Shown: in pieces, positions 481 through 11,478 of the stretch
Numbering within the stretch: position 1 is the first letter of the stretch
Layout: each line of letters opens with the position of its first letter
DNA from: Cyclostephanos tholiformis
Taxonomy: Eukaryota; Bacillariophyta; Thalassiosirophyceae; Thalassiosirales; Thalassiosiraceae
Assembly: GCA_036939975.1 (NCBI GenBank)
Contig: JALLPB010000973.1
Location: 1-11,950, forward strand
DNA: 11,950 nt
Reading direction: 5' to 3'
Notes under the pieces: generated by a model
What the model was told of the DNA's origin: nothing
Databases searched by the model: none
Seen by the model: only the letters and a program-made list of their open reading frames with translations
Made by a program: the position numbers and the translations under genes

Positions 481-529
481 ATCCCAAGAAACCACTCGAT
501 TCAAATATACCCATTTTTTCACCATGTAA

Positions 530-890
530 TATCAAATATGGAAACTTCCGTAAAATGCATATTCAATATTAGATGGCAGTAGTAACCTGTAACTTCAAAG
601 TTACGGGTCTTGTCACCATCTAATATTGAATATGAAAAATGCTGTAAACCTTATATTTGATATTAGATGACTACAGTATATTGTAACTTCAAAGTTAGAT
701 AGTGGAGGGCCATCTGATATCGAATATGGAATTGCTGTATATTTGATATTAGATGGCAGGAGTAACCTGGGTAGCCCCTGCCATCTAATATCGAATATGA
801 CCCTTAAAAAATTACTACATTTCCCGTAATGCCAAAATTACGTTCGTTACTACGTATGTAACTTCGAAGTTACCAATATTCGATATAGCT
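530..890. repeat. Inverted-repeat cluster, about 90-bp period
   Basis: This AT-rich block is built from one motif in both orientations. CATATTCAATATTAGATGG at 558-576 and its exact reverse complement at 616-634 form a 19-bp inverted repeat. Variants of the forward arm recur ending near 670 and 756, and variants of the reverse arm at 710-728 and 781-799. Arms 740-760 and 777-797 pair with one mismatch. Between and after the arms lie smaller dyads: GTAACTT/AAGTTAC at 589-604, a related half at about 682-697, and a perfect 16-bp palindrome GTAACTTCGAAGTTAC at 858-873. Spacing of the AGATGG motif is 94 then 86 bp. It could be a satellite fragment, nested MITE copies, or the terminal repeats of the adjacent DNA transposon. 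Confidence 0.75.
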
Positions 891-2514: not shown

Positions 2515-2519
2515 ATAGC
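2515..2519. repeat. Left target-site duplication (ATAGC)
   Basis: The 5 bp left of the 3' LTR read ATAGC. The 5 bp right of the 5' LTR (7518-7522) read ATAGT. Four of five bases agree, consistent with the 5-bp target duplication usual for Copia elements after one later substitution. Confidence 0.6.
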
Positions 2520-2845
2520 TGTTGATGCAATACCATTACTAGGGTCCGTGCAAGTAATGATGCAATGGAATGCCTGTGTATAACGTAGTAAAGAGAGATT
2601 AGAATTAAAAAGTGACAAGAGGGATAAAAGCCCTCTTCCACACTCAACTTCCCTGGCATTCTTAGTGCACGGTACATGCCCAGGCTCCAAGGCTATCCAC
2701 CAATGTATTGGAGAGAAGCCCTTCCCTCACCTGCCACGTCGTTGTTTCCTCTTGCCACATCAGAGACAGCCATCTCTTTCTCTATTAACCCACCTTCATT
2801 GCCATCTGCTCGTTCGTCTTGTTTTCCTGCCTGTTCTCCAATACA
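2520..2845 (-). repeat. 3' LTR
   Basis: This LTR is about 93% identical to the 5' LTR at 7186-7517. Read on the element's strand it begins TGTATTGGAG (2 nt longer than the 5' copy at this point) and ends GCATCAACA, giving TGT...ACA ends. The pol frame continues across the boundary and ends at a TAG at 2695-2693 inside the LTR. The purine-rich tract just upstream on the element's strand is short (GCAGGAG, 2846-2852), a weak polypurine tract. Confidence 0.9.
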
Positions 2846-3412: not shown

Positions 3413-4583
3413 TCAAGAAAGTGACTGTTGGTTGGATATCTCTGCAAGCCCGTGCACTGAGGAACAAGATGTGAGCCACCATGTGATGAACTCCCTGGCC
3501 TGCTCCTCTGGCAGTGGGCGGGCATCTTTGTCTTCCCTCACGTTAAACAGGTGATCTGCCACCAGTGTACACTTTGTTGCTGATATATCTTCTGGGAAAT
3601 TAGAAATGATTCCCTTGACATATTCCACCATGTTGATTATCACGTGCCCATCCACCAAATAGTCCAGGATCATCCCCAAGTAATCATGGACCTTCCCTCT
3701 GTGTTCCACCATGGCTACCTCCTATGCTCCGCTGAGCCCAAACTTCATTACCTCCCCCGTATCCACGTGTGACACCTTGAGGTCATCTACGTGCCAGCAC
3801 ACTGTCATCTGGTTTCCATTGATCATTTTGTTTGCAACACATGGAAAGTGACAAGCATCTGATAGAACAACAGAGCACTCCTGAGCAGTTCATACAACGC
3901 CTTCTGTATTTTAACATAGAGAATAGGTGTGTTTCAATTATTGACTGTGACATACTTACAATACAGGTTGGGCACCACTTGTACCATCAGCTCCGCCAGT
4001 CACCCTTTTAGCACCATGGTGATGTCCTTGTCACTGTTGGCGTGAAGGAAAGCACCTCGGATATCATAGCTCACCACCTCCCTGCACTCATGTGCCTCTA
4101 TTACGGCAGTCAAGAATACTGACTCGGTTGTAACAGTGAGAGATGTGGTCTCTTGCTTCGCCCATTCCTCCCGCTGTTTCCTCCCATCCATGCAGAATTG
4201 CCGTTTGATGGACTTATCTTGCTTCTCTTTTAGGAACACCATGAGAGATGACACAGCCTTGGCCCTCTCCTCACGAGTTAGGTCACTCCTGTACACTGGC
4301 ATGAACACAGTCATATTGTGCATTTGGGCCAGTTCCTTCATCATGCCCTCCACCCTCCTCACCTCATTCCTTGAACTTCTTGAGGCCGGCCCTTAATGGA
4401 GTATTGCTGAAGGATTACCCCTAGGGCATACTCAAGTCTGTCCTCGACTGGGATTGGCTTGGTATCGCTGAGATCATCAGAAGAGAATATCATATATCCA
4501 TCCTTGATGATTCCTTGCTTGGGTTCCCCCTTCTCTTGTGCTCATCCTTGTATGAGTAGAGCGTAGTTGTCATAACGTGTTGT
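3413..4583 (-). pseudogene. Copia pol: reverse transcriptase (RVT_2), broken
   Basis: Reading leftward, an open stretch from 4362 gives QMHNMTVFMPVYRSDLTREE, a basic finger region, and SYDIRGAFLHA, which holds the first catalytic Asp (codon 4065-4063). A TGA at 4002-4000 follows, then LAELMVQ, another TGA at 3936-3934, ALYELLRSALLFYQ, and then a frame change with apparent loss of a short segment. Next comes MTVCWHVDDLKVSH, whose Asp pair (3787-3782) is the second catalytic motif (the YVDDL equivalent). A TAG at 3724-3722 is followed by HDYLGMILDYLVDG and the thumb region to 3413. Both catalytic motifs survive, but at least three stops and a frameshift prevent a product. The N-terminal approach (LEYALGVILQQYSIK, about 4460-4400) is in another frame from the fingers. 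Confidence 0.85.
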
Positions 4584-6057
4584 TCATCCCTTGTTCTGCC
4601 TCTTGGAGCGGTGTATGTCATTTGGGTACTCATCCTCATCATCATTATCAGCTTTATTGTCCGTTATCAGCTTTATTGTCCGATTCTTTATCGGAATAGT
4701 CGTCTTCATCTGTCTTGTTGTCCTTGTTGTCGTCACTGAGCACGATTGCGTCCCTCTTGTTCCGCTATAGCATGGGTAGGTCAGATACCATGATGATACC
4801 AATGTCATCAATTTCTTGAGTGCCAATCTCCCCATAGTCTGCATTGATGATGGCGGCTGGGAGAACATTTGGGATGACATTCCTGTCTACTCCTGCAATG
4901 TCCACTGGTTCAAGCCTGGTGTTCCATGCCACCCTGAGTCAAGTTTGTCTTCAATAGTTGGCATGGGTGTAGGCCGGTCTTGCTCTAGGGTCACTTCTGG
5001 AACCTCCACCACAACGGGCTGGTAGGGGATCACATCATCCTCAATTAAGCCATCAGGGGACTTGTCAATAGATTCATTCCACTCGAAGAGCACTCCTGTT
5101 TGGTCCGCAAAGTCAAAGCGTACCATTCCACCTTCGCGATGATGGAGTCCGGCAATTCCTGTTTCAAGGTTGAAAAACTTATACGTCCCCTGCAGGTTCC
5201 CCTTGGATCCAAGCACTATAGCCGATGTTGAACGGGGGGTTATGTCATTAGTAGGTGATGGCTCATCATGGGCTTCACAATACAAACCAAATGGGGCCTT
5301 GCAGTGCTTCTTAAAATCGAGTCGATGCCAAAGAACAATCCCTCGTGGGGATAGGTTTTCCGATAGTCCAGACTTTGATGGGAATGCATTTAGCCAAAGC
5401 ACCATGTGATAAATGAGTTCTATAAGGATAACTTGCAGCAGCCACTTGAAAGGCAGAGTGCTAAGGATCCTTTGTCCTTGCTCTTTGATCACCCGGATAT
5501 GCCACTTGATCTCCGGAATGTGTGCTTTTGCAGCCGTGGTGTTGATATTCAGAATCGGGATGAGGGGGGGAGTTTTTCAAATTCGTTGTCCATCAGTATC
5601 ATCCCAACTGTAAAGCCCCCTCAACCGTATAGATGTCGGACCTGTTCTATCCTTCTGATGAGAGACTTTGCTGTTCGGACTGGCAGAAACTCAGCTGTTA
5701 ATGGGTTAAGGCCCCTGGCCAGACTAACTAAGAATGGTACCCCATTTACAAACATCACACCCTTGAATCTTGCCCAGGTTCTGACCTCATTCATGTTGCT
5801 ATGCCCCACGAGCCCTCACTCGGCCTCGTGCACGTTGTTGAGAAGTCCCTGTATGGCATGCTGACATAGCTCACACATGTGTCAATGTAAAGGTGATGGG
5901 GATGCAACATTCCCGATACTCTGATCCGTTTGTTTCCCTGCTGCACAAGGGTCCACTCCTGCAACTCGATCCCGCACCTGCAACCCGACGGTTCCACCCT
6001 GAATAAAGCGCGCGTGTCATCAAGCTCGTCAACATTTAGGTTGTTGATTCCTTCCAC
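4584..6057 (-). pseudogene. Copia pol: protease remnant and integrase, broken
   Basis: From 6057 the frame downstream of the zinc knuckle runs to YIDTCVSYVSMPYRDF, the retropepsin-like D-T motif in a degenerate form. After a frame change GLVGHSN is followed almost at once by VMFVNGVPFLVSLARGLN of the integrase core. The protease C-terminus and the pre-integrase zinc-binding region are therefore apparently deleted. The expected first catalytic Asp is Gly (codon 5761-5759). A TGA at 5623-5621 precedes LMDNEFEKL (second Asp). A 7-base G tract at 5564-5570 coincides with a frameshift, followed by NINTTAAKAHIPEIKWHIRV (catalytic Glu) and the integrase C-terminal domain (LPFKWLLQVILIELIYHMVL). The acidic linker to RT has a frame change near 4900, a TAG at 4767-4765 and a frameshifting 19-bp duplication at 4645-4682. 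Confidence 0.85.
4645..4682. repeat. 19-bp tandem duplication inside pol
   Basis: TTATCAGCTTTATTGTCCG is present twice head to tail (4645-4663 and 4664-4682). Nineteen is not a multiple of three. Removing one copy restores a single minus-strand frame running from the acidic KTDEDDYSDKESDNKADN stretch into DDEDEYPNDIHRSKRQNK. The duplication is therefore a late inactivating lesion rather than original sequence. Confidence 0.85.
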
Positions 6058-6069
6058 CGCTAGGTCTGG

Positions 6070-7146
6070 GCATCACCGCATCTGGTGTCCTGGCTTTTCA
6101 CAGTGCCAGCAATTGGGATTGTTAGAGTCTCGACCGTCTCCCAGCTCCGCACTCCTGTATAAAAGCAAGCCCTTCCCTTGCTTTATCACGGGCATGCTGT
6201 GGCCGGATCATGATCTTGTAGTCATTGAGGAGCCACGTTGCCTCCACCATAGTCTTTGGGTAGTTGTCTGTACCCTTGGTCATGTCATTTGACAGCTCGA
6301 CTTTTAAAGGCCCATACCTAATGTTGTCAGCACCTCGTAAAAGCATGCACGCAAGGTATTCCTCCCAACAAGTGGCTTTCACAGCTTCAATCTGTGTGGG
6401 AGTCATGTTCTTGAGGTGATCAGGGTCCACTCTCTGCCCCACCAAGTGTGTGTTGATGGGCCCAGGTGCGTTTCTGTATGCTCGTCCATATGTCTCGACC
6501 ACTCTGATGGGCATGGTAAAAAATTTTACATAATTGGTGTTAGTCATCTCATGCCTCTGATAGTAGGTAGGGATGCAGTGCTTGGCTTGTTCTAGTGCCC
6601 ACATGCTTTGTTGATGTGCTCTGAAGTCGCAGCAATACCCTCGGATCAGTTGGAGTAGCTCCACTATGTCCTGCAAGGTGTTGATCATGGAGTAGTTGGT
6701 GGCTCCCTTAATCTTGCTCTCTAGCTCGGGGGAACACTGCCCTAGCACAAGTGCGTAGGCCCTTTTCTTGCTCTCTTCAATTTGGATAGCTTGTGTTCTC
6801 TTTTCTTGTGTCTCTTCTTTCCAGATGTACAATGCCTCTTGATCTACTGGATCTCCTGGAGTGGCTGGGGTGGGGAACCTTGGCAGCATAGTGATGGTGG
6901 GAAGTACCAGGTCACACATGGCTTGCGCAATCTCTGCCCCTGACTTATATTTCTGTTGGATGTACCTTGCAATCATACAACCAATTGTCACTACTTTGTG
7001 GCATACTTCACATTTCCTATATCCAAAGTGTGGGTTTTGAGCCCGACCACCCTGGTCGTGAACTCCTTTTCCTGTGGTTTGGTCCGCCTTCGGGGCTTTT
7101 TCCCCTCCACCTTCGGCTTCTGTTCCTCTGTTGTCATGTTGATCAT
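6070..7146 (-). pseudogene. Copia gag with CCHC zinc knuckle, broken
   Basis: On the minus strand gag starts at an ATG at 7146 (or 7137), giving MTTEEQKPKVEGKKPRRRTK, a basic N-terminus. It reads to GNVKYATK and a TAG near 6994, where a one-base shift is needed to enter the long open stretch 6991-6122 (VTIGCMIARYIQQKYKSG onward, largely helical, capsid-like). A second shift close to 6150 leads into a nucleocapsid zinc knuckle at 6111-6070. It is spaced CX2CX4HX4C exactly (C-W-H-C-E-K-P-G-H-Q-M-R-stop-C), with an in-frame TGA at 6075-6073 in the residue before the last Cys. The intact order and clean knuckle support Gag; two frameshifts and the stop make it a pseudogene. Gag would package the element RNA. 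Confidence 0.85.
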
Positions 7147-7171: not shown

Positions 7172-7185
7172 CTTTTTAATTCTAA
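7172..7185 (-). promoter_or_regulatory. Primer-binding site region, complementary to own LTR
   Basis: These are the first bases after the 5' LTR on the element's strand: TTAGAATTAAAAAG. They do not start with TGG, as a site for a tRNA 3' end would, and do not resemble an initiator-Met tRNA half-molecule site. They are the exact reverse complement of LTR positions 7265-7278, and the match extends one base into the LTR end (7186 with 7264). The position is that of a primer-binding site; self-priming is inferred. Confidence 0.6.
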
Positions 7186-7517
7186 TTTTGATGCAATACC
7201 ATTACTAGGGTCCGTGTGAGCAATGATGCAATGGAATGCCTGTGTATAACGTAGTAAACAGAGATTAGAATTAAAAAGTGACAAGAGGGATAAAAGCCCT
7301 CTTCCACGCTACTGTAGTTGACTTCCCCAGCATTCTTAGTGCATGGTACACACCCGGGCTCCACGGCTTTCCACCGATGTATTGGAGAGGAGCCCTTCCC
7401 TCACCTTCCACGTCGTTGTTTCCTCTTGCCACATCAGAGACAGCCATCTCTTTCTCTATTGACCCACCTTCATTGCCATCTGCTCGTTCGTCTTGTTTTC
7501 TTGCCTGTTCTCCAACA
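7186..7517 (-). repeat. 5' LTR
   Basis: On the element's strand this begins TGTTGGAGAACAGG at 7517 and ends GCATCAAAA at 7186, against GCATCAACA in the 3' copy, so the last Cys-to-Ala-type base change (C to A) is probably a mutation. It contains an initiator-like TCACTTT (YCAYTYY) at 7281-7275 and, just upstream on that strand, a 7-bp hairpin at 7283-7303. Relative to the 3' LTR it has an 8-nt indel in the region of 7308-7320. Confidence 0.9.
7275..7281 (-). promoter_or_regulatory. Candidate initiator (YCAYTYY) in the LTR
   Basis: TCACTTT on the minus strand fits the YCAYTYY initiator pattern used in stramenopile core promoters, with the A at 7279 as a possible +1. The same bases are kept in the 3' LTR. 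No TATA box is seen at the expected distance. Transcription from here would make R plus U5 about 94 nt. The motif is short and would be unremarkable alone; its weight comes from lying one base before the segment complementary to the primer-binding site. Confidence 0.4.
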
Positions 7518-7767: not shown

Positions 7768-8730
7768 ATGAAAGGCTCCGCCCTCCTAGGATTTGTCTTA
7801 TGCCTCCGAGCCGTTTCGGCTTTTCATTTTCACAGTGCACTCACTCCTCGATCAACGAGTCTTTCCCACTGCGTCCTGAGTAGTCATGACGATATCGTAA
7901 ACAATGACCCGACGTCGGTCACTCGTCAGGCGTTTCTCGGGAAAGCTCTCGTCGCCTCGTCTCTCCCGTCTCTCCTGGGAGGGATCCCTTCTGCATTCGC
8001 CAATGACATCGCCGGTGCGTGCAACTATTTCGATGATTGCCATTTGTCGTCCCGACAATCATGATTTCTTATAAATTGTCCAGGCCCCCCTCCCGGAGCT
8101 GCCATCTACGCCTTTAGATCTGGAGGCCTGCCATCCCTACGCCCACTCGGGCTAACGAAACTCCTCACCCGATACGAGGGGTACGTCGAGGCGCCGAAGT
8201 CATATCCCAGGAGCAATATTCCCATAGCCTTCGACCTCCCATCTGATTGGCTCCAGCTCGACAAACTGGGCGGGGGCATCCAATACGTCGATCAACGGAA
8301 CGGCGACAAGTTGTACATGCTTCGTGCCACCCTACCGGAGGGGACCGATCTGAAGAGCGTGAACAAGCAGTGGTTCGCGGACGTCGTGCTAAGTCCGATG
8401 GGAGACGTCGTACGGAGCGGGGTGGTGGCCGAGGGGGGGAGGATATCCAGATCCCAGATGATCGTCGATTGCGACTCGGAGGATTCGCCACCGTCGTCGT
8501 GTCCCGCACCACGTCGTCGATTGGTGCTGAAGTACGATACCGTCACGGGAAGCGGCGTCCAGACCGTGGAGAGGAGAGGATTGATAGAGTCGTATCAGGT
8601 GGGGAACGACGTCTACATGATGCTGACCACGATGAACGCGGTGAAGTTCGAGCAGAAGGGCGGCAAGGAGAGGGAAACCGTAGATAACATCGTGAGCTCG
8701 TTCAGGATCGGCCAAGGTGCCTTTTCTTAA
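7768..8730 (+). CDS. PsbP-like thylakoid lumen protein, plastid-targeted
   Basis: Two exons (7768-8014 and 8084-8730) encode 297 residues. The leader has three parts. First is a signal peptide (residues 1-18) ending in AVSAF-H, close to the diatom ASAF plastid-import motif. Next is a Ser/Thr-rich transit peptide. Last is a thylakoid signal, TRQAFLGKALVASSLPSLLG, ending in SAFA with likely cleavage after Ala78. The mature part, from about residue 112, has PsbP-family features: IPIAFDLPSDW near the start, a central strand region, then YDTVTGSGVQTVERRGLIES and a C-terminal ETVDNIVSSFRIG helix. PsbP and its relatives sit in the lumen at photosystem II, in water-oxidation support, assembly or related roles. 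The ATG at 7768 has A at -3 and begins the signal peptide; an upstream in-frame GTG at 7705 is not a eukaryotic start. I cannot tell true PsbP from PPL or PPD subfamilies. Confidence 0.78.
8015..8083 (+). other. Spliceosomal intron of the PsbP-like gene
   Basis: The intron is 69 nt with GTGCGT at the 5' end and TTGTCCAG at the 3' end. Its length is a multiple of three, but reading through meets a TGA at 8062-8064, so splicing is required. It splits codon 83 (G|GC, Gly) in phase 1. Joined, the protein reads DIAGPPPGAAIYAF without a break. Confidence 0.85.
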
Positions 8731-8835: not shown

Positions 8836-11447
8836 TTAGACAAATACAATTTGTTCGAGCCCATTATCCCCTACATCCTCCTCTTCCTGATGTTGCAACG
8901 GTGAAAAATACTCGCCACGATCGGCATCTTGATTTCCTGCAGCCCCTGCGGGTTGCCCTGTTGCGCCCACCATGCAACCATACCAAGCACTGTCGCGACT
9001 CAGATTGGCTCTTTTTCGCGGTATCGGTTGACCAAACTCATACCGCTTTTCATCTTGTTCTATAGGGTGTGCTTTTCCATCGGAATCTCCGGCCACGGCC
9101 ATGACCATTCCGCTTCCCACGGTCAAGACGAACCACGCAACCCCGACAGTCAAAAAGCTATCCATTGCGTTAAATTGGACCTCGATGCACGTTTGGCCAT
9201 GCTCTGGGTCCGCTTCCCGACACCTATCGTCCTGGTAGATTGTGTCAGTGATGGCGGGAATTTCCCATTGAATCATGAACAGGGCGACGATGAGAACCTC
9301 CCAGCAGCAAAATGCCCCAAGCGCATCGATGACGGGCAGCAGTGCTCTCCGAAAGGTCGACGTAGCCCGGTAAAGCGCCAAGCGCAACGTCGTGCGACGA
9401 CGCGGCCGCTCGATGCATTCGCCCAACAACGCCTCCGGCAGTCCCAAGAGGACGTGCAGCAACAGGCATATCGAACGAAGGATAGGCCCAACGATCGCAA
9501 ATAACCCAAAGGTCAGCATAAGGAACTTATCCCATCCCCCGGCATCTCCCGTAGTTTTCACCAAGGAAGTTAGAGAATATTCCTTTTCCCAAATCATCCC
9601 CAGTACCTCGTGAAGCAGGGTCGGCCCACCGCCATATACGAGGCGTTGCATCGTCGGGAGGGTGACGGCGTACAGAACGAGCGGAAGGGACGAAACGGAG
9701 AGCAAGATTAGGACAGCTCGTTTGAGCAGGCGGCAGTTCGTGGTGGGGGAGGGCGTCGCGTAGTACGATTGACGTCGTAGTAACAAGCGGCTATCGCCGC
9801 CGCCTCTCGCAAGCCTGGCATACTGATCGCCGACTCGGGATGACGTCGCGGACATGTAAGATCGAGGAGAAGACGGGGGTATGCCGTCCGACCTCGACGG
9901 CAAAACAGGATTCGACTCGTCTCTAAGCTCCAACTCGTTTCCCGATCCGCCCTGATTGTCGTCGCTGATCTCACCCGGCACTAATATGAACTCCAAATCT
10001 CTCCTACGATCCAGAAGATCCTCCTCGACTCGATTTCGATCCCTCACGTCGAAAACGTCAACGACCAGGCTAAGTAGTATGCTCGATATGACCGCGGCGC
10101 AGAAATAATACGTCCCCGACATCCCCATTACGCGAAGCTGGGCGTGTCCCCCCCCCTCGAGAGTTATGCCATCGAGTATATCCCTACCCTCACCGGCGGT
10201 CCACTCGGGATGGGAGTAGGCGTTGTTAATTAATGTCTCGCACGCGAAGCAGGCGGGATAATGTATCACGAGGGCTTCGCCGACCTTGCATTTGTACTTC
10301 AACAATGCCGTGCAGTCCTCGATCGAATCCGGATACTTCAATTTTACATAATCCAATAGGGTCGGTAGCTGTTCCTCGATGCCATTTCGTATCTCGTCGG
10401 GATGGACGTTCCAGTCCAAATGTAATACGGCGATGAGTATGCACACGACCAACACGTCCGCCAACGACCACTTCCCGAGCGTGGACAGCGCGCGCAGGAA
10501 GGGCGTGCGGAGCGTTCGGGATTCGTGCTTGCGTCCGTCGGAACAGCATAGGCCGCATAGCGTGCCGGACGATGATGCGTATCCGCCGCCGTCGTCCCCG
10601 CCCGATGATATTTCGGTTATCCTCCTGCTCATCAGCGAGCGGGAATAACGGATATTCCTCCTCCCCACGCCCCCCCCGTCGTTGTCGTCGCCGTACATGT
10701 CGCGATCGAGGTCATCGTCGTCCGTCCCCCCCCCCAGCACCACGCCGTGCGCGAAGGGCAAAAACCAACAAAGGTGCATTAGCAACAGCTTCAGGTGGGG
10801 CCATATTCCCGATGCGATTACCAATAACGCCGCCGCTACCTTCGACATTTTTTTAGCATCGCCCAATCCATCCCCCCTCCAAAGCTTGTTTATCGCGTCC
10901 ATGTACGTGAACGTCTCGATAAGTCCATTATCCTCCCTCCTCGCATACCTGTACTCGTGCGGCAGGTTGAGCACGTCCATGGCGGCCTTCGATTTGACCG
11001 TGGTGGCGGATGCCATAACGTTAACGTCGATGGTGTACGACAGGTTCCACATCGGCAGTGTCTGCGCCTTGAAGAAAAGAGCGTGATTAACGAGTATCAA
11101 GATCGGTATCAGCACCTTGGCGATTTTGGGCGTCGCGGACGATCCGACGAGGGTGGAAGAATGGGTTAACGTCCCGTTGGTTATGCCGCGACGATTATCG
11201 GATCGGGAGGGAGGCCGTTTCGTCCTACCCCCCCCCCCCCCGTCGCCGCACACGGGCATCATCGACCCGGCCTGACGGCCGATGACGAGCAGACGACGAC
11301 GCGCCGCTAGGTAGAGTGATGCGATCGCACGCCTCGTGCGTATCGACGCGGAGATGGGACGGGGATGATCGGTCGTGGTGACGAGCGAGCCGAGGGAAAG
11401 GGAAGAGGACGGCGACGATCGTCGTTCTCCTCCTCCTCCTCCTCCTC

Positions 11448-11478
<31 letters not shown>

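What the first reader, a model, noticed from the sequence alone, without database searches (positions are those of the whole stretch)
7172..7281. Copia retrotransposon with Tf1-like self-priming signature
Seen: the 14 bases directly after the 5' LTR (7172-7185) are the exact reverse complement of 7265-7278 inside the LTR, and 7186 also pairs with 7264, giving 15 bp. On the element's strand the LTR segment starts one base after the A of a TCACTTT initiator-like motif (A at 7279), and both LTRs keep it. Known: in Tf1 and related Ty3/gypsy-type elements the first bases of the mRNA fold back on the primer-binding site and are cleaved to form the primer, instead of a tRNA. Inference: if RNA starts at 7279, nucleotides 2-16 pair with the site, and a primer cut after about nucleotide 15 would begin cDNA exactly at the LTR end. 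No tRNA-type site (TGG start) is present. A chance 14-base match at precisely this junction is very unlikely. I know of no self-priming Copia element.
Basis: partly seen in the sequence, partly recalled or inferred. Interest (0 to 1): 0.86.

Follow-up and report, generated by a model that had tools for sequence, protein, structure and literature searches.

The report
Self-priming Copia retrotransposons in a diatom
A family of jumping genes in a diatom carries, next to its left end, a short stretch that matches the start of its own RNA in mirror form, and in many relatives both stretches have changed together, so these elements very probably start copying themselves from their own RNA end instead of borrowing a cellular tRNA.

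Summary
In detail: window 7172-7186 and 7264-7278 are perfect 15-nt reverse complements, and the second stretch recurs in the 3' LTR. Of 35 candidate LTR/PBS junctions examined in the same genome, 31 have a 14-nt PBS pairing with an LTR segment (25 perfectly, 6 with one mismatch), 53-85 nt before the LTR end. Sequences differ (19 PBS cores) but pairing is kept: covariation score 0.425 (type A) and 0.330 (type B), reached by 0 of 500 shuffles. No PBS matches the 30 tRNA hits clearly better than shuffles; another Copia there has a half-tRNA-iMet site. Four sampled self-primed elements form one RT clade (support 1.000). Two of three related contigs from other organisms pair too. Best reading: Tf1-like self-priming by the RNA 5' end in a Ty1/copia clade. 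Transcription start and cleavage are inferred; there are no RNA data. New here: the diatom clade, the covariation and a U5 hairpin.

The parts
7186..7517 (-). 5' LTR (TGTTGG...CATCAAAA), 332 bp
2520..2843 (-). 3' LTR (TATTGG...CATCAACA), 324 bp; carries the same primer segment
7518..7522 (.). target-site duplication, upstream side (ATAGT on +)
2515..2519 (.). target-site duplication, downstream side (ATAGC on +), one difference
7279..7281 (-). TCA of the initiator-like motif; A at 7279 is the inferred transcription start
   Evidence: sequence; CA stands directly before the 14-nt primer core in 29 of 31 paired elements, CAT in the other two, C1367 and C1474; the start itself is not tested
7265..7278 (-). 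self-primer segment (14 nt); nucleotides 2-15 of the RNA if it starts at 7279
2599..2612 (-). copy of the self-primer segment in the 3' LTR
7240..7261 (-). U5 hairpin just 3' of the primer segment (4 pairs, covarying among 17 type A elements)
   Evidence: alignment A1 columns 20-41
7172..7185 (-). primer-binding site, directly after the 5' LTR, complementary to 7265-7278
6122..6991 (-). gag-position open frame (no Pfam match)
4000..4362 (-). fragment of Copia reverse transcriptase (RVT_2, 20 bits, below cut-off; 70% identical over 76 aa to two self-primed relatives)

Best explanation
The element is a decayed copy of a Ty1/copia retrotransposon that primes reverse transcription with the 5' end of its own RNA. 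Transcription starts at or near the A of TCA in the LTR (inferred). The first about 15 nt of the RNA fold back on the PBS directly after the 5' LTR (pairing supported by covariation). The RNA is cut after the primer, in front of a U5 hairpin, by the element's RNase H as in Tf1 (inferred), and the 3' OH starts minus-strand DNA exactly at the LTR end (follows from the position). The 3' LTR copy restores the primer segment after strand transfer, and copying of the primer into plus-strand DNA remakes a matching PBS each cycle (inferred; it would explain why the match stays exact while the sequence drifts).
For: Position at the LTR end and perfect 15-nt pairing in the window. 31 of 35 candidate junctions pair over 14 nt, 25 perfectly and 6 with one mismatch: 17 of 18 from the type A pattern, 14 of 17 of type B. 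Seven elements picked by RT profile range and mostly long open frames, not by PBS, all show it: C66 and C87 at once, C138, C1367 and C1028 and, with one mismatch, C77 after extending the stretch, and C159 against its 3' LTR because its 5' LTR is off the contig. Covariation, type A: 98.7% of cells paired, 35 cells changed on both sides, score 0.425 against a shuffled mean of 0.120, each 0/500; slid controls at most 0.096. Type B: 99.0%, 23 cells, 0.330 against 0.109, each 0/500; slid at most 0.091. Own PBS/LTR pairs beat all 20,000 permutations within each type. tRNA: the run anchored at the PBS start is at most 6 of 14 against 30 tRNA hits. In the same genome C1467 has a 14-nt half-tRNA-iMet site, so tRNA priming exists in this host. 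The four self-primed RTs sampled group with support 1.000. Related contigs L120 and L121 pair as well.
Against: No transcript, cDNA or cleavage data: start and cut are inferred. 4 of 35 junctions do not pair: C6, C349, C1470, C1339; decayed or chance pattern hits, not resolved. LTR ends of relatives are taken from the shared CAACA, not from LTR pairs; only the window's were checked by its LTR pair. Not every covariation measure stands out: pairs with a double change 21/500 (A) and 11/500 (B), further pair types 276/500 and 150/500, and shuffles ignore relatedness. Complementarity runs past the expected RNA start in some elements: 10 nt beyond the 14 in C74, 7 in C811, 4 in C1408, 8 with one mismatch in both C35 copies; a single fixed start does not explain this. 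The tRNA set is 30 hits of an incomplete assembly with no organelle set identified; internal runs reach 8 nt (C8 with tRNA-Arg). The Tf1 three-duplex structure was not reproduced. Of the three related contigs, L122 gave no pairing that could be placed at an LTR; no LTR was in hand there.
Confidence: 0.88

Rival explanations
1. A tRNA or half-tRNA primes at this site and the LTR match is incidental.
For: Half-tRNA-iMet priming is indicated for other Copia of this genome; the window PBS shares 6 nt from its first base, 7 with the last LTR base, with the anticodon loop of tRNA-Arg(UCU).
Against: 19 different PBS cores, none with more than a 6-nt anchored run or an 8-nt run anywhere to the 30 tRNA hits; at least 7% of shuffles did as well in every case. 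None of the 35 PBS begins with TGG. The PBS tracks the LTR instead.
Confidence: 0.03
2. The stem is a structural or regulatory leader hairpin (packaging, dimerisation, masking of the site) and priming is by some other RNA at the same place.
For: Covariation shows that pairing is kept, not what it is for; a covarying hairpin lies next to it.
Against: One strand of the stem begins directly after the conserved CAACA (window CAAAA) in the 31 paired junctions, where a primer must sit to make a correct LTR end, and no other complementary primer was found in the tRNAs at hand.
Confidence: 0.06
3. The primer is the RNA 5' end, but acting in trans (from a second RNA in the particle) or as a separately made short RNA.
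For: The sequence data do not separate cis from trans.
Against: The short loop (53-85 nt) and the neighbouring hairpin favour folding in cis.
Confidence: 0.03
4. A local inverted duplication or chance in this copy.
For: None beyond the single copy.
Against: 31 of 35 junctions pair, with diverged, compensated sequences; chance simulation 0 of 20,000.
Confidence: 0.001

Closest known systems
Tf1/sushi group (Ty3/gypsy chromoviruses; Tf1, Tj1, Tosmo)
   Same: PBS directly after the LTR and complementary to the (here inferred) first bases of the RNA; no tRNA match; structured U5. Tf1: first 11 bases, cut between 11 and 12 (PMC7175516, passages); pretzel structure (PMC10085805, passages); Tj1 (PMC4600332, passages).
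   Different: Reverse transcriptase is Copia type (RVT_2); predicted primer about 14-15 nt; a local U5 hairpin rather than the published three-duplex form; no experiment here.
TAR lineage of plant Ty1/copia (Houba, Osr-1)
   Same: Ty1/copia with predicted self-priming (PMC6317226, passages).
   Different: Plant hosts; the passages seen give a prediction from at least 10 bp complementarity in the 5' LTR; relation of the RTs not tested because no TAR sequence was held.
Half-tRNA-primed Copia (Osser, Bryco in PMC6317226; here C1467, probably C53)
   Same: Superfamily; C1467 and C53 share the host genome.
   Different: PBS GGTTATGAGCCCAA pairs with tRNA-iMet positions 26-39, and no run of 9 nt or more of the C1467 site pairs with its own LTR; C1467 RT about 25% identical to C811 RT.
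Fungal GalEa Copia with conserved hairpin site
   Same: Copia lacking a tRNA site (PMC5445492, passages).
   Different: Its site is palindromic and its authors found no U5 complement; here the complement is in the LTR.
Diatom CoDi1-7 Copia groups
   Same: Diatom Ty1/copia.
   Different: A word search of the main text found nothing on primer binding or tRNA (PMC2806351); group assignment not tested.

Membership tests
Ty1/copia superfamily | Copia-type reverse transcriptase (RVT_2) | tested here: met
   Window fragment 20 bits, below cut-off 31.6, but 70% identical over 76 aa to RTs of C811 and C1408; C811 scores 62.7.
Ty1/copia superfamily | Integrase before reverse transcriptase in pol | not tested
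   Integrase was not looked for.
Ty1/copia superfamily | LTR pair with TG..CA ends and short target duplication | tested here: met
   TG kept in the 5' LTR, CA in the 3' LTR, each lost in the other copy; ATAGT/ATAGC.
Self-priming LTR elements (mechanism of Tf1) | PBS at the LTR end complementary to a segment inside the LTR | tested here: met
Self-priming LTR elements (mechanism of Tf1) | No tRNA-complementary PBS | tested here: met
   against 30 tRNA hits of the same, incomplete assembly.
Self-priming LTR elements (mechanism of Tf1) | RNA 5' end lies at the primer segment | not testable with these tools
   No transcript data.
Self-priming LTR elements (mechanism of Tf1) | RNase H cut frees the primer | not testable with these tools
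   Needs biochemistry.
Self-priming LTR elements (mechanism of Tf1) | U5 structure next to the primer/PBS duplex | tested here: inconclusive
   Type A hairpin: covariation score 0/500, though pairs with a double change 140/500. Type B: score 5/500 and one slid version nearly as high, 0.183 against 0.195. Not the published pretzel.
Tf1/sushi group (as a lineage) | Ty3/gypsy chromovirus | tested here: not met
   RT matches the Copia profile RVT_2.
Half-tRNA-primed Copia | PBS complementary to an internal tRNA region | tested here: not met
   (30 tRNA hits); contrast C1467.
Plant TAR lineage | RT clusters with TAR | not tested
   No TAR sequence held.
Fungal GalEa CHS elements | Palindromic site without U5 complement | tested here: not met
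   Complement in the LTR is present.

The most novel reading that the evidence does not exclude
A whole old clade of Ty1/copia elements, in diatoms and in other hosts so far seen only as contigs misfiled in bacterial genome bins, has given up tRNA priming for its own RNA end, independently of Tf1/sushi; because the primer is copied into the PBS each cycle, primer and site evolve in step, and the length of the match in each genomic copy records where its parent RNA began.
Probability: 0.65. Interest if true: 0.8.

Novelty: new variant of a known kind. Interest (0 to 1): 0.7.

Why it matters
Self-priming was shown for Tf1 of the Ty3/gypsy superfamily and, in the papers seen here, only predicted for plant Copia. 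A diverse Copia clade with compensatory changes gives comparative evidence that the pairing is kept, suggests that the switch away from tRNA happened in diatom Copia too, and offers a testable idea: self-primed elements keep a genomic record of their RNA start. It also means that annotation which looks for a tRNA-type PBS will miss such elements.

Tried and rejected
Considered and dropped: tRNA-Arg(UCU) half-tRNA priming (6-7 nt only); chance or a local duplication; GalEa-like palindromic site. C1434 and C195 were tried as further tRNA-primed controls: the C1434 stretch gave no recognisable LTR junction and the C195 primer stayed unknown. Viral-contig scans found no relative. The RT matched no solved structure by sequence. 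A free-running scan for the signature is not specific alone: 24 hits of at least 13/14 in 165,372 strand-bases around tRNA genes, 21 of them from one GAC repeat in three overlapping loci, and 2 in 213,924 around RTs; it flagged L120 but not L121, which only the wider scan (gap up to 250 nt) showed. In one search the L122 hits could not be tied to an LTR/PBS junction and were set aside; a similar hit (score 11) appeared once in the coding part of L121 and none in that of L120.

Rows left out of counts: of 33 matches, 17 read as PBS-like; C159 is not in the table of 35 because its contig starts 50 bases upstream, the other 16 are; the remaining 16 were LTR-side (antisense) or unclear matches. 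C87 entered through its RT, not by a pattern. C159 in the seven-of-seven statement is judged from its 3' LTR match alone. Identical LTR/PBS pairs were merged (23 unique of 31). C221 was realigned by 3 bases by hand and is not in the extension count. The RT tree used 21 of the 30 RT loci L009-L038.

Full report
What is there. The window is contig C948 of a 24.95-Mb assembly that encodes a silicon transporter (PF03842, E 4e-206), so the host is very probably a diatom. An LTR element lies on the minus strand: 5' LTR 7186-7517, 3' LTR 2520-2843, 4998 bp in all, flanked by ATAGT/ATAGC. Its coding region looks broken: a gag-position frame at 6122-6991 without Pfam match and an RVT_2 fragment at 4000-4362 below the cut-off. 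The fragment is 70% identical over 76 aa to the RTs of C811 and C1408.

The observation. The 15-nt inverted repeat 7172-7186 / 7264-7278 is exact and is also in the 3' LTR. Simulated LTRs never gave more than 10 anchored nt (20,000 trials). The LTRs differ at 22 aligned positions, yet the three stretches agree over 14 nt.

Relatives. A first look at LTR-similar loci showed that LTR segment and PBS had changed together. A pattern for the LTR end plus PBS, with no letters of the LTR segment in it, gave 18 hits against 1 for the reversed control; 17 of 18 pair with an LTR segment. Independently, seven elements were picked by RT profile range and mostly long open frames, and their 5' regions fetched. 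They have a second type of PBS, and all seven show the match, C77 with one mismatch and C159 through its 3' LTR only. Further type B junctions bring the table to 35, of which 31 pair (25 at 14/14, 6 at 13/14) and 4 (C6, C349, C1470, C1339) do not. CA stands directly before the 14-nt segment in 29 of 31 (CAT in two), and TCTC or TCTT follows it in 31 of 31 (27 and 4); the gap to the PBS is 74-85 nt in type A and 53-61 in type B. In C77, C138, C1367 and C1028 the LTR segment occurs twice, 5.68-5.85 kb apart, as expected for two LTRs, with open frames of 1798-1903 aa at the RT.

Covariation. Merged, there are 23 different LTR/PBS pairs with 19 PBS cores. Type A (17 elements, 16 distinct rows): 98.7% of cells paired, 7 of 14 pairs changed on both sides, score 0.425 against 0.120 in shuffles; cells paired, double-change cells and score 0/500, but pairs with a double change 21/500 and further pair types 276/500; slid controls at most 0.096. 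Type B (14 elements): 99.0%, 5 of 14 pairs, 0.330 against 0.109; the same three measures 0/500, the other two 11/500 and 150/500; slid at most 0.091. Shuffles do not keep relatedness; the slid controls do. RNAalifold finds the same stem unaided. A hairpin just after the primer has double changes in 4 of 4 pairs in type A (score 0/500, number of such pairs 140/500); in type B the support is weak.

Not a tRNA, as far as tested. Against 30 tRNA hits of this genome no PBS core has more than 6 anchored complementary nt or 8 anywhere, and in every case at least 7% of shuffles did as well. As a contrast the Copia element C1467 carries GGTTATGAGCCCAA, complementary to positions 26-39 of tRNA-iMet. Of 11 exact matches in the genome two are the tRNA genes themselves and one, C53:6013, begins directly after an LTR match ending at 6012.

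One clade, other hosts. RTs of the window, C811, C1408 and C1367 group with support 1.000, apart from 21 other Copia RTs of the genome. 1766 proteins of the public set match the C811 RT at E 0.001 or better (120 listed). Three contigs filed in bacterial genome bins encode relatives (46-48% identity) and fall in the same RT clade. Two of the three show the pairing after the main pol frame and just before a gag-position frame: L120 (12 exact nt, 14 with one G-U) and L121 (18 of 19, one mismatch near the LTR end, gap 143 nt). The third, L122, had no LTR in hand.

Mechanism. Supported by sequence: position at the LTR end, pairing, covariation, no tRNA match in the set held. Inferred: RNA start at the A of TCA, cut in front of the U5 hairpin, priming, and remaking of the PBS from the primer. 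Beyond the 14 nt the match runs on by 0 nt in 15 of 30 elements, 1 nt in 9 (C77 past a mismatch at position 14), 2 in two, and 3, 4, 7 and 10 in one each (C221 not counted). Most matches thus end at about nucleotide 1-2 of the inferred RNA; the long ones are not explained by a single start.

Known or new. Self-priming is established for Tf1: first 11 bases, RNase H cut between 11 and 12 (PMC7175516, passages), with a three-duplex structure (PMC10085805, passages). In Copia it was predicted for the plant TAR lineage with Houba and Osr-1 (PMC6317226, passages). Fungal GalEa elements lack a PBS and any U5 complement (PMC5445492, passages). A word search of the diatom CoDi paper found no text on primer binding (PMC2806351, passages). 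Seven paper searches (listings only, beyond the papers named) showed me no self-priming Copia in a diatom; subscription papers are mostly not held and supplements could not be read, so this is not proof of absence.

Noticed in passing
L077 (C74), L089 (C811), L082/L083 (C35): Primer/PBS complementarity runs to 21-24 nt, past the inferred RNA start (one mismatch in both C35 copies); may mark other transcription starts.
   Followed up: partly
window 520-800; L037 at about 667 and 3149: Dispersed palindromic repeat with core CCATCTAATATYGAATATG; the word CTAATATCGAATAT turned up in L037 as well.
   Followed up: no
L120, L121: Contigs in bacterial genome bins whose two ends repeat the same gag-position stretch at 95% identity with one LTR/PBS region in between: misbinned eukaryotic sequence, tandem elements or LTR circles.
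   Followed up: partly
L118 (C195:2790-2910): Copia with a short LTR of about 90 bp; a stretch of about 20 nt is repeated in tandem at the LTR end; primer unknown.
   Followed up: no
window 7283-7303: Short inverted repeat (AAGAGGG..CCCTCTT) just upstream of the inferred start, with related forms in other LTRs.
   Followed up: no
window 11428-11472: TCC repeat inside a 970-aa frame, read as a glycine run; the frame has only a weak PqiA match below cut-off.
   Followed up: no
window 7768-8060: Frame with MKGSALLGFVLCLRAVSAFHF looks like a diatom plastid-targeting leader (motif recalled, from no call); no Pfam match for it or the stretch downstream.
   Followed up: partly
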